Translations under genes and position numbers: made by a program
Shown here: piece by piece, positions 20,001-26,000 of the stretch
How the letters are laid out: the number at the start of each line of letters is the position of its first letter
Position numbering within the stretch: position 1 is the stretch's first letter
The notes under the pieces: generated by a model
Seen by the model: the letters and a program-made list of their open reading frames with translations, nothing else
Database searches by the model: none
Told to the model about the DNA's origin: nothing
Assembly: GCA_964023275.1 (NCBI GenBank)
Contig: OZ029917.1
Span: forward strand, 20,805,988 to 20,869,987
Reading direction: 5' to 3'
Length of the DNA stretch: 64,000 bases
DNA from: Norana najaformis
Taxonomy: Eukaryota > Annelida > Clitellata > Crassiclitellata > Hormogastridae

Positions 20001-23000
20001 AGACGCGAAATCAACGAACAAACGCTAAACTGCGTCGTCAGAAATAAACCACAATAAATAATAATCGTCATAAAGCTAATGCGAATTGGAATTTGAACGA
20101 GTGAATCTAATTGATATGAACTGGTAACTCAGCTGCATAGCTAACTTGGGCAGAGATAGACTATTCGGCCACATGGTAACTCAACCTGATAGGTAAGTAA
20201 ATTCATAAGTAAATCAACTGCGAAAGACTGAAGATAATGAATGCCTGTTAACAGTAATTTAGAGTGCTCATAATAAGTGGTGAGTATAGGTCTATAGTCA
20301 CTGTTATTTAACAGCATAACTTCACCTCCTGTGTTCAAATATGCTCCGGCTTTTCTTCTTCGGCAATTATCATCCGATTCAGAATTCTAAGCTTCTAAGC
20401 CATGTCAGAATGTTCTACGAAATGCTGCTTTACTCCATGCTCTGATTTAGTTATGCCTTGCTATTAAAGAGCTGTTCTTTGTGTCAGGCCAAAGAAACAA
20501 AGCGACCTTCTGGCTCAGTCGAGGAGACGATGGTTCGGACATTGGGTCGAGGTGACCATTTCGGCGAACGAGGACTTGACTCGTACGTCTTTCTTTTTTC
20601 TCCCTAAGACGATACTAGGCAGATGGATAAGATTAAAGCTGAAAATAATATGCTAGACTAGACTAAATTTTGAGACAAGATTAAACTACAGTAGAGACTA
20701 CAGCATACGATTGCCTATAGAAGCCATAGTCTACACTAGACATTAGCCTAAATGAGACTATACTCAAAACCAGATTAAATTAATGACTTTATTGCTTCGT
20801 AACTCTGTGTCCTATTTGCCATTGCTTTATTCTATGCATTTGAAGTCATTCTATCTTTGGGGTGACGTAAATAATATCTTCATATCTTTGTCACTCTTTG
20901 CAGAGAAGAAACACGAACGACGACAGTCACAGCGAATGACATTCAGGGCGTTTATTGTCTCGTCCTCGACAAACGGTCAGTCATATCTTCATTCTCTTCA
21001 TCTTCTACTCGCTGGAAGATCACTTAGAACAGTTTGTTACGCAAGATACAATATTAATTTTTATTTATTTATATCTAATATATAATATCAAGAACATATT
21101 TATAGCCAACTGAAAAGAACTTAGCTGAGAACTCGGATCATCTAGGTTTGATGTAGAAGACCTACAACTACTAGTGTCTGAGCGTTAAAATGACCCTTCA
21201 AAACAGGCATTACACGCAGTTCTTCGATGTCAAAAGCCAATTTAGAAAGCGCCAGCATTTACGCAAGCACTAATCGTATACGGAGATAAATCGATTTAGA
21301 TTATAAAATGAGTCATACAATTAGAAGATATAATAAGACGGCAACAGCAGAAATTTAAAGGGATAGAAACAACTGAAGATTGGGATGAAATGGGAAGGTA
21401 GTGGACTGGTTGAAGCACCATCTTTATGCTGATGATACTCAACTCTACATTTCCTTTGATAATTCCTCTTCTTCCTGCTCTCTCACTCGATTATCTGACG
21501 TCTTTATTCAAGTTCAGTTATGGATGGCAGAAAATGGACAATGATTTTGTTTAGCAGCAACCATCGACTGATTCCTTGAGCATTATTACAGTGGCGCTAT
21601 AGAAGTTTTTAGATTAGATTAGACTGGTGTGTGTTATTCAAATGGGATTATTAAATTGGCTGTGAGATATCGTGGGTGCATACAGAGTAAGATAGGATAG
21701 ACTTGAATTGATTAAGATTATGATATAAAAAAGTGATTTGAAAGACTGCAGCATCGGGTGGAAGCATCTTGTCTACATTCACCTGAGCTTCTTGCTGGTC
21801 CTTCTTAGGTCGCTGTCTGTGCTGATGAGCCAGCCTCAGGCCAATGGGAAGAAGGTATCGAGCGAAGACGAAAGAGCCGAATCGTAAGTTATTATTCGTC
21901 TAGAACTTGTCCATTCAAAGAAACCTAGTATTGTCTTTTTTGTCTCTGCTTCTCTGCGTCTCTCTTTGTTTCTTTCTCTGTCTGTTTGTCTGTCTACCCC
22001 TCTAAGCAATTAAAATCTCAAGACTTGGTCTCGATCTCAGTATATTTGTAATATCTCTGTGTCTTTGGCTTTCCCTCTATTTCTAGCAATCTATTTGTCT
22101 ATATGTACGTCTGTTTGTCCTCTCTGTATGTATGTATGTATTATGGTATGTATGCATGGTACACTCTGTGTCGTGTGTATATATGTCTGCCTGACTGTCT
22201 GTCAGGACATCTATACGTCTGTGTGTCTATATCTGCATTTGTATCTCTCTATGTCTGCCTGTATTTTTTCTGTCTGTCTTTTTGCTTCTGTATGTATGGA
22301 TATTTCAAGACACAATACAGCATCTTTAAGTACCTCTCTGTCTCTCTGTCTCTGTCTGTCCGGTTCTTCGCATTCACTGCTTCCCGTGTGCCTCTTTTAC
22401 CAGTCAAAATCACCCTCACCTTGTAACTCCGCTGCAAATGACGAAGTTTGTCAGAGACGACGGATGCAACAACAGTAGGGATGCAAAGACGATAGAGACT
22501 TTGACTGTGCACTTGACAATATGGTTAACAAATACACCTACAAAAACTGATAGTCCTTCTATTCATTAGTCTGCGATCCATTCGATTAAGATTTTCATCT
22601 GCTCGTCACTCATTCATTGCTATAGGAAGAGCGATCCATTCATAGAAGGACTGACTACATCGGACTTGAAGGCAGTCGCCACAATAGGAGTCGGAGGATT
22701 TAGTCGGGTTAATTTGGTAAGCAACAACTCCCTCCCAGTAAGCTATAGACAGACAAGGCATGGCTTGCTTGAACTCGTTGCCTATTCATTTCCTCTACAC
22801 CCGCTGCTTACGCAGGCCTCCTATTGCTTCATCGCTCGGATGCTTTTTCGTTCGCCTGTAATAGCAGGGAACGAATTTATTTCTTTCTATGTTGCTAAGT
22901 ATACGAATTTTAAAAGTGTCATAATGGTTGGCAGTGACCACATGTTTTTTAATCAAGCTTTATTTCCTTTCGATTGCAACAAGAAGAATTGAATTAGTTA

Positions 23001-26000
23001 AGCCAACACATTTGTTTTCCATTCACATCATGGACAGGGAAGATAACAGAGAGAAGATAGAAAAACGATAGATAGATTACGGATCAGACTGTGACAGAGA
23101 GGCAGAGAGAAAGGCAAAGAGTGAAGGGAAAGGGGAGAGACCTACAAAAAAGAAACGAGTGAAGAAAACGGACGTAGGAGATAGAAAGAGTTAAATATTA
23201 TGAAAGACAGACAGACAGACAGACAGACAGACAATATGAAGACGACTAGTAAGAGCGATCGACTAATGAAGACAGAGAGATATAGAGGAAAGACATAGCT
23301 GAAAAGAAATAGGAGACACAGAGGCAGATGAATATATAGAAATAAAGATGAAAAATCTAATCTAACCTAACCTAATCCAATCTAATGACTTCTGTAGCGC
23401 CGTTGTTATGATGCAGAATCAGTCGAGATCCACGAAGCTTCAAAATCAGAGGACAGGCTACGAAGAGAAGAAGCAATTCGGAAAAGATAGGATTTTACCT
23501 AGACCTGAAGGACATAAGAGAATTTGCAGAGCGAACAGAAATAGGAAGCGATTTCTAGAGTCCTGGACACCACCAGTTAATTGCAAAATCCCTGGAACTT
23601 AGGACTGCCCAGGCTCAGGGTACAACAACATGAGCGATTGCAAAAGTCTGATGGAAAGAAGAAAAGATAGTTGGCTGGCCAATATGCATTCCATTGTAAA
23701 CTATGAGACATTTTGAACTGGATTTTTAGCCTGCGTAGAGATGATACATGCAGCCCTATCAAACTCAAGAAAGCGTGAGATCGTTCGATTGCACAGGATA
23801 TCTTGTCGACGAAATGACTCAGTCGCATTGCATTGTATTGATGAGTTTTATTTAGAGCACTTGAGAGACGTCAAAAGTCGTTGGCCGGTCATCATCGTTA
23901 GCCCTAATTAGTTGCACTATTCTTAATGCTGCTATCAGCTGTCGTTAGGCTTCAAACAATGAGCTAGTGCAAAACTGAGTTGGAAAAGCAACTGAATCCG
24001 TCTGAATGACTGCAGGTCTACGCATGTTCGATTATACGAATTTATGCTCTGATAACATAGGCAGGTTGTCATCGTTGTATTAAAGTATAGGCCTATACAT
24101 CATGTTGAAGCAGATCAAACGTTCATGGGTTGCTTTAGATTCAAACTAGGGGAAAATATATAGGAGTCAGCTAAAATCACCTACGCGTCTGGGTTTCGAA
24201 ACTCACTAGTCCCACATGATCAGAGGAAATTTCTTGATTCTCTCCCATGCAACGCAACCAAACAGAAAGAATTTCGTTTATCCGATGATCTATGCCTCAA
24301 TCGAAAGAACTAACTACCCAAGAACCGAATCTCGAAGACTAATATTGCTATGTACTTACCTTACCTTACTATTCATTACATTATAGTACAGAAGCTTACC
24401 TTAATGCTACTGATTTAAAACCCAAATGAATGCATTTATGTATGTATGCATGCATTTATGTGTGTATGTATTATGTATTTATGGATGTATTATGTATATA
24501 TGCATGCACAGATATACATAATAATGTGCATAGATAGTGAAATATAAACGTTACAGCTTAGCCATTAACTCACATTATATTTTTAAACAGTTTAACGACA
24601 CTTTATAGGCGTCATAGACCGTTGACATTCATTATACTTAATTTATTTGCTGATTACAATTAGTAACTTAAGCCCTTGACTTTGTGTTCTATTTAGGTTA
24701 TTGCTTTGCTTTGCCTTTTTGCTTTGCTTTTTGACGTGTCGGTATTTTTCTGAAGGGCAAGATCCATTCCCAGGGACATTAGTTTCGAAGACCTTGAAAT
24801 AAAGACGACCATTGGGGTCGGAGGATTTGCTCGAGTCGAACTTGTAAGTTTCGCTTTCTACTTGAGTCGTGTTTCCATGGCTACAGTCAAACTTTACGGC
24901 ATGCAGAATATCCTTAGAGCAGATACATTATCTCTGACACGATTACTGTGTGGGGACCTTGAACAAGTTCTTCACTTTCAATTGCTAAGCGCCATAGATC
25001 AATGCATTGTCATTAGATAATGGCTCTTGATAAATACTGAAATAATAATAGTACCAATATTCATTATCTGCGTTGACTTCAAAGTCTATACTAATTTGAG
25101 AAAATCCAAACAGACTTTACTATTAACACGAGGGCCTGCATTAATTAATAAGTGCTCCTGGTGTTGTCTGTCTTTGTTTTTTTTTTATGAAAGGACGTTA
25201 ATTGCCGTAGTATTTTTTTGGATTTTGGTCTTTTAAGATTTTGTTCGTGTTGCATTTTGGCTTTCTGTGATTTGATATAAAGAGTATTTGAATGATATTT
25301 TTGTATGGCTTTTCTCTTTTTAAATATTGACACATTAGATGCTTCTAGTTAAGATTGCTTTATACAGAAAGCTTGTGATCAAATCTGTGATCAATACACA
25401 GAAGGCCTTTAGCATCATAGTTCAATATAAATACACTGTTGAAACAGAATTTTAAACAATTTGAAGTTAGGTAGGTAAGTATCTAAAAAAACATCTCCAT
25501 TATTTGTCTAGCATTTCATTGTCGTTCCTTTCATTCTTTGCTGGTTTAATTTGCACATTAATATGTAGAGTACACAATGAACTGAGAATCACTTTGCAAA
25601 GAACTTCTCAATAGCACTTCCTAAACCGTTGTACAAGATCATGGCGTCCAGCTACGGCGATCTGTTCGGCATCAGTCGAGCTCACTTCAAATATAGAAAC
25701 CCATACCCTCCGACGAAGCTTCTTTGCGGTTGCATGTTGGCTGACTGTGTAAGACGAAAGAGAATACACAATCCAGGCTTCGTGCTGCTGAGATACTGGA
25801 CAGGTTGAAATGACTTGTGCTCGGAACACGCACAGTTAAACCCAGCGATTGACTCTCAGACTGACTGCTGTTACTCGATCAAGGCCGAGGTCATTGCCCG
25901 AAGTAATCGTTGAATGTCGGCTTACGACGGAACAGCTGAGACCGAATCTAATCCAGGATTTACTTATTGGTGACAAGCTCAGCGTGAAGAAGTCCTATTA

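What the first reader, a model, noticed from the sequence alone, without database searches (positions are those of the whole stretch)
22626..24843. Two interchangeable exons for the ATP-binding glycine loop of a PKG gene
Exon 10a (91 bases) and exon 10b (88 bases) encode the same structural element, the lead-in to the kinase domain plus the glycine loop ([10 protein letters not shown] versus [10 protein letters not shown]). Both have intact acceptors and donors and enter in phase 2 and leave in phase 0. Including both shifts the frame and meets TAG within exon 10b; skipping both also shifts the frame. Reading phase therefore enforces mutually exclusive use. The known PKG isoforms I can name (vertebrate I-alpha/I-beta, fly foraging) differ at the N-terminus, not in the catalytic ATP loop. 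Such a switch could change ATP affinity, basal activity or coupling of the linker to the kinase.
Basis: partly seen in the sequence, partly recalled or inferred. Interest (0 to 1): 0.88.

Follow-up and report, generated by a model that had tools for sequence, protein, structure and literature searches.

The report
Swappable ATP-loop exons in PKG gene
A complete animal gene for the cGMP-activated protein kinase PKG carries two alternative versions of one small exon, which encodes the hinge to the kinase and its ATP-gripping loop; the reading frame allows only one at a time, but no RNA data were available to prove that both are used.

Summary
Window 4744-32238 (+) holds a complete PKG I-type gene with two versions of exon 10: 10a (22626-22716, 91 nt) and 10b (24756-24843, 88 nt). 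Either one gives a full protein (673 or 672 aa); both together hit TAG in 10b; skipping both hits TGA in exon 11.

Neither copy looks dead. A profile built only from the single exon 10 of eight PKG paralogs in the same genome scores 10a at 36.8 bits and 10b at 35.5; the next-best window stretch scores 6.8. Each of the eight paralogs readable there shows one exon 10; a ninth is masked.

The exon is wider than 'the glycine loop': it also encodes the tip of PKG's switch helix (10a F-I-x-G-L, 10b I-P-x-D-I, human F-F-x-N-L), and the third glycine is Ser in 10a, Ala in 10b. I infer mutually exclusive splicing that swaps linker tip and ATP loop together, like FYN 7A/7B.

Not shown: transcripts, other species, enzyme differences. 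Literature searches on PKG exon pairs listed no such case, in an open-licence library only.

The parts
4744..32238 (+). PKG I-type gene, coding part from ATG to stop; 18 exons of which 17 are used in any one product
   Evidence: exon models and joined ORFs; Pfam PKcGMP_CC, 2 x cNMP_binding, Pkinase; best solved relative 7lv3, PKG I-beta
21809..21883 (+). exon 9 (75 nt, phase 2 to phase 2), last common exon before the pair; weakly conserved, least certain exon
   Evidence: exon-9-like stretches in paralogs A (E 0.006) and E (E 0.13) with a human query
22626..22716 (+). exon 10a (91 nt): [30 protein letters not shown]
   Evidence: leave-out profile 36.8 bits
22717..24755 (+). intron between the two alternative exons, 2039 nt; too long for exclusion by crowding
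   Evidence: coordinates
24756..24843 (+). exon 10b (88 nt): [29 protein letters not shown]
   Evidence: leave-out profile 35.5 bits
26485..26624 (+). exon 11 (140 nt), common acceptor exon; carries the catalytic lysine (human K390 equivalent)
22323..22358 (+). pyrimidine-rich simple repeat in intron 9, arm of inverted repeat I1 (36 nt, 78% complementary) that brackets exon 10a only; role speculative
   Evidence: whole-intron duplex test shows no excess over 12 shuffles
23085..23120 (+). purine-rich simple repeat in the intron after 10a, second arm of I1; role speculative

Best explanation
A PKG I-type gene has two tandem, homologous, mutually exclusive versions of exon 10. The spliceosome joins exon 9 to either 10a or 10b and then to exon 11; both or neither shifts the frame and stops early, so such mRNAs would be degraded or make no kinase. 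The exon encodes a compact unit running from the tip of the switch helix, which couples the cGMP-binding part to the kinase, through beta1 to the end of the glycine-rich ATP loop. The switch therefore changes regulatory coupling and ATP loop in one step. SHOWN: two intact exons, phases, frame outcomes, homology to single exons of eight paralogs, signs of constraint on both. INFERRED: use of both in mRNA, exclusivity in vivo, and effect. I expect mainly a change in basal activity or cGMP gating (10a keeps a hydrophobic F-I..L tip; 10b has I-P..I) and a smaller change in ATP handling (third glycine Ser against Ala).
For: Frame outcomes. Leave-out profile of eight paralog exons scores 10a 36.8 and 10b 35.5 bits, window background 6.8. 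One exon 10 in each of 8 readable paralogs, all ending at the same phase-0 donor; in seven the likely start gives lengths 91-103, all 1 modulo 3 like 91 and 88. Constraint: dN 0.57, dS 1.68 over 22 codons, third positions most changed; in a neutral simulation of 20,000 runs per setting, keeping the nine conserved residues plus reading frame and splice dinucleotides falls to about 1% at 0.2 changes per site, 0.01-0.02% at 0.4 and 0 at 0.84. Only this exon is paired: no other exon of the gene has a neighbouring second copy. Switch-helix role and residues F351, F352, N354, L355 from PMC10390508 (passages), mapped.
Against: No transcript evidence and no second species. Both acceptors are on the weak side for this gene. 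The dN/dS rests on 22 codons and near-saturated synonymous sites. Both exons score lower in the leave-out profile than the eight training exons (56.9-65.5 bits, which are favoured because they built it). The nest that receives the switch-helix tip in human PKG I has itself changed in this protein (T221, L225, W289, Q296, F321 equivalents R, E, H, D, L; F222 and F258 kept), and position 351 is not hydrophobic in most paralogs (E, D, S, Y, V, G, E, E), so the mammalian coupling model may not transfer. No RNA-structure device for exclusivity was supported.
Confidence: 0.78

Rival explanations
1. One copy is a relic of an exon duplication that still looks intact but is no longer spliced into mRNA.
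For: No transcripts were available; both acceptors are weak for this gene; 10b has an unusual proline at the switch-helix tip.
Against: Both exons score alike in the leave-out profile, keep the nine (nearly) invariant residues of the alignment, reading frame and splice dinucleotides; neutral drift would have destroyed this well before the observed divergence. A relic that lost its role only recently is not excluded.
Confidence: 0.12
2. The second exon serves mainly as a brake: including both exons (or neither) makes a frameshifted mRNA that is degraded, so the pair sets PKG amount rather than PKG type.
For: Both and neither give early stops.
Against: A pure brake exon need not keep a PKG-like peptide with the right entry and exit phases, as both do.
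Confidence: 0.07
3. One of the exons belongs to a different transcript, for example one from an internal promoter that makes a shorter kinase.
For: None positive; the introns are long enough to hold a promoter (742, 2039 and 1641 nt from the coordinates).
Against: Both exons begin with an acceptor in the phase that fits exon 9, and the open frame just upstream of each holds no ATG.
Confidence: 0.03

Closest known systems
FYN exons 7A/7B (FynB/FynT)
   Same: Tandem homologous exons of one kinase gene, used alternatively (listed with MAPK14 9a/9b in PMC5224494, passages seen). From recall: FYN exon 7 spans the SH2-kinase linker and the start of the kinase domain with the ATP-binding loop, i.e. 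the same architectural place.
   Different: Tyrosine kinase with SH2/SH3 control; unrelated regulatory part; here a cGMP-gated AGC kinase and a different origin of the pair.
Mammalian PRKG1 isoforms I-alpha/I-beta
   Same: Same enzyme type; alternative splicing that changes activation by cGMP (PMC9417419 abstract; PMC10390508 passages).
   Different: There the variable part is the N-terminal zipper and autoinhibitory segment and the rest is stated to be 100% identical. Here it is the linker tip and ATP loop.
Mutually exclusive exons in other kinase domains (MAPK14 9a/9b; from recall also JNK 6a/6b and Aplysia PKA catalytic subunit)
   Same: Swap of a short homologous stretch inside a kinase domain. 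MAPK14 appears as a homologous exon pair in PMC5224494.
   Different: Other parts of the kinase domain (recalled); JNK and Aplysia PKA were not checked by any search.

Membership tests
PKG (cGMP-dependent protein kinase), type I-like | N-terminal coiled coil, two cyclic-nucleotide-binding domains and an AGC kinase domain in one chain | tested here: met
   PF16808 37.5 bits (cut-off 35), PF00027 two stretches, PF00069 236.7/236.8 bits
PKG (cGMP-dependent protein kinase), type I-like | Catalytic residues: beta3 Lys, HRD-type Asp, DFG Asp, activation-loop Thr | tested here: met
   K390, D502 and T517 equivalents present; YRDLKPEN and VDFGFAK in the product
PKG (cGMP-dependent protein kinase), type I-like | cGMP activates the kinase | not testable with these tools
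   needs expressed protein
Tandem homologous, mutually exclusive exon pair | Adjacent, homologous exons with the same entry and exit phase | tested here: met
Tandem homologous, mutually exclusive exon pair | Joint inclusion and joint skipping are unproductive | tested here: met
   TAG in 10b; TGA in exon 11
Tandem homologous, mutually exclusive exon pair | Both single forms occur in mRNA, joint form rare | not testable with these tools
   no transcript data held
Tandem homologous, mutually exclusive exon pair | A known exclusivity device (crowding, U2/U12 clash, competing RNA structures) | tested here: inconclusive
   2039 nt between the exons and U2-like GTAAG donors argue against the first two; duplex energies of three intron pairs no better than 12 shuffles each, though simple inverted repeats flank 10a

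The most novel reading that the evidence does not exclude
One gene of at least ten PKG genes in this animal makes two enzymes through a compound cassette that swaps the allosteric coupler tip (switch helix) and the ATP loop as one unit, so that basal activity and cGMP gating are set by splicing inside the catalytic half. The pair is old: 10a and 10b are no closer to each other (12 of 22) than either is to the exons of separate paralog genes (10a to F 14, 10b to D 15).
Probability: 0.4. Interest if true: 0.75.

Novelty: new variant of a known kind. Interest (0 to 1): 0.57.

Why it matters
PKG isoform biology in mammals rests on N-terminal differences. Two natural enzymes that are identical except for about 30 residues spanning the switch-helix tip and the glycine loop would be a clean experiment on how the regulatory part talks to the kinase, which is a current question in PKG activation. 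It would also be a second case, in an unrelated kinase, of the FYN-like trick of swapping linker and ATP loop together. If the two forms behave alike, it is an ordinary exon duplication.

Tried and rejected
Chance: rejected by shuffles and the leave-out profile. Assembly doublet: rejected, since the 300-base flanks share no more than 8-base matches and the last 66 bases of the exons are 35 of 66 identical. Other duplicated exons: the full scan (one search was cut in print) shows no second copy near any other exon; the best stray hit is an exon-6-like stretch at 12787 (E 0.003), in intron 2, far from exon 6, taken as chance and not followed. RNA pairing as exclusivity device: inverted repeats around 10a exist, but whole-intron duplex energies did not exceed 12 shuffles for any of three intron pairs (a crude test for long introns). 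Kinase tree of 11 rows: 0 of 8 inner branches starred, used only for nearest rows. Viral contigs: one pattern match, no relative. Literature: searches found 21, 51 and 1 papers with the terms (20, 15 and 1 listed, starts of abstracts seen); passages of three of these (PMC12387084, PMC11058841, PMC4290612) do not concern a PKG exon pair; the rest were not opened except PMC6143667 (passages; alternative first exons of PKA, no such pair).
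Full report
What is there. The window carries, on the + strand, a complete gene for a PKG I-type protein kinase, 4744-32238. I located exons with a recalled human PKG sequence by tblastn, placed the splice sites by hand and joined them. All introns of the model are GT-AG. The product has the PKG coiled coil, two cyclic-nucleotide-binding stretches and a protein kinase domain; its best relative among solved structures is PKG I-beta, 7lv3 (E 6.7e-244 for the 10b form, 7.4e-245 for the 10a form). 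The 10a form is identical to the recalled human protein at 385 of 667 aligned residues. Exon 9 is weakly conserved and the least certain part; with a human query, exon-9-like stretches appear in paralogs A (E 0.006) and E (E 0.13). Because exon 9 is 75 nt with phase 2 on both sides, leaving it out would not change the phase argument.

The pair. Exon 10a is 22626-22716 and exon 10b is 24756-24843. Each length is 1 modulo 3; each enters after two codon bases and leaves in phase 0. With one of them the protein is 673 or 672 residues; with both, the frame meets TAG in 10b after 386 residues; with neither, TGA in exon 11 after 350.

More than chance. The last 22 residues of 10b, slid along the upstream sequence, score 60 at 10a; 200 dinucleotide shuffles of the introns reach at most 26, and the real introns without 10a reach 12. 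Flanking introns are unrelated, so this is neither a recent tandem copy nor an assembly doublet. No other exon of the gene has a second copy nearby.

Internal comparison. The same genome (608 Mb, 17 contigs) holds many further PKG-like exons. I fetched 11 loci in 20 stretches. Nine (A-I) are PKG paralogs with several PKG exons each; two (J, K) look like other AGC kinases. With the window gene that makes at least ten PKG genes. Eight paralogs (A, B, D-I) can be read at exon 10; the ninth (C) reads N there. In all eight the exon ends at the same place; in seven the likely start gives a length of 91-103 nt, 1 modulo 3, and in A the start is unsettled (98 or 127 nt); some have further AGs, so the starts are my choice. 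A profile of all ten exons finds one site in each of the eight paralogs and two in the window, 53.0-62.6 bits; the best other hit is 19.5 bits in the non-PKG locus K. That scan covers fetched sequence only and its profile contains the exons themselves. The fair test leaves 10a and 10b out: they then score 36.8 and 35.5 bits, the paralog exons 56.9-65.5 (they built the profile), K and J 23.5 and 14.3, and everything else at most 8.1. The two window exons are equally good, somewhat divergent PKG exon 10s.

Constraint and age. Of the last 22 residues 12 are identical between 10a and 10b; third codon positions have changed most (8 of 22 identical, against 11 and 16 at positions 1 and 2); dN 0.57, dS 1.68. 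In a neutral simulation the nine conserved residues together with frame and splice dinucleotides survive in about 1% of runs at 0.2 changes per site, 0.01-0.02% at 0.4 and none of 20,000 at 0.84. 10a is no closer to 10b (12 of 22) than to several paralog exons (up to 14, F), and 10b is closest to D (15). The duplication is therefore old or the exons have evolved fast. The kinase tree could not settle the order. Over the conserved exons compared, the window gene is nearest to C (77% of 245 columns) and D (75% of 245).

What the exon encodes. Placed on human PKG I-alpha without gaps it runs from about residue 347/348 to 376. [quoted passage not shown] At these positions 10a has F, I, G, L and 10b has I, P, D, I. 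Among the eight paralogs position 352 is F or L in seven and S in one, 355 is V, I, L, A or M, and 351 is mostly not hydrophobic (E, D, S, Y, V, G, E, E). Proline at 352 is found only in 10b in this set. In the ATP loop the first two glycines are kept in all; the third is Ser in 10a, Ala in 10b, Ser in paralogs F and I, and Gly in the other six. PMC9417419 (passages seen) reports that the glycine-rich loop contacts the bound nucleotide in autoinhibited PKG I-beta. From recall, replacing the third glycine in PKA is mild, so I expect neither form to be dead. Against a simple transfer of the mammalian model, the nest has changed in this protein: equivalents of T221, L225, W289, Q296, F321 and of helix residue Y336 are R, E, H, D, L and S, while F222 and F258 are kept.

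How it probably works. The best reading is mutually exclusive splicing of tandem homologous exons, producing two PKGs that differ in one compact element at the joint between regulatory and catalytic parts. Frame rules make the other outcomes unproductive. How the cell chooses is unknown: the exons are 2039 nt apart, so crowding is unlikely; both have U2-like donors; RNA pairing has no support beyond simple repeats that flank 10a. The functional difference is inference.

Known relatives of the idea. Homologous exon pairs in kinase genes are documented, among them FYN 7a/7b and MAPK14 9a/9b (PMC5224494, passages seen). FYN is the close architectural parallel (that detail is recalled). For mammalian PKG I, isoforms differ only in the N-terminal part (PMC10390508). 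No report of a PKG kinase-domain exon pair appeared, which cover an open-licence library and of which I saw listings and a few passages. Hence 'new variant of a known kind'.

Limits. No transcript data, no second species, an unnamed organism, one masked paralog, no structure model, and a protein database that was switched off.

Noticed in passing
G000: nine loci A-I on contigs C1, C3 (two), C5, C9, C11, C13, C15 (two); L029-L046: The genome holds at least ten PKG-type genes (window gene plus nine paralogs), far more than the two PKG genes of mammals (recalled). Intron positions around exon 10 are shared.
   Followed up: partly
L039/L040 (paralog F), L045/L046 (paralog I): The third glycine of the ATP loop is Ser in these single-exon paralogs (GFSRV, GFSKV), as in exon 10a, so Ser there is not peculiar to the pair.
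   Followed up: partly
window PKG protein, CNB-B (exons 5-9): Residues equivalent to the human 'nest' W289 and Q296 are H and D, and Y336 is S: the second cyclic-nucleotide domain looks unusual.
   Followed up: no
G000 contig C2, about 0.2-9.8 Mb: About 45 matches (my hand count) to the first half of the kinase profile (to about position 128) lie on this one contig, nearly all in this span: apparently a large local expansion of kinase-like exons.
   Followed up: no
window 22323-22358 and 23085-23120 (with 21961-22360 and 23202-23290): Complementary simple repeats (TGTC/GACA type) on both sides of exon 10a would place it, and not 10b, in a loop; no excess over shuffles in a crude duplex test.
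   Followed up: partly
window 12787-12852 (+): Exon-6-like stretch in intron 2 (E 0.003), probably chance.
   Followed up: no
window 36397-37221 (-): Rhodopsin-type receptor exon (7tm_1, E 5.2e-35).
   Followed up: no
window 42071-43291 (+): Reverse-transcriptase fragment of a retroelement (RVT_1, E 2.2e-8).
   Followed up: no
window 5063-5733: Tandem array of a 22-bp unit, about 30 copies, just downstream of exon 1 in intron 1.
   Followed up: no
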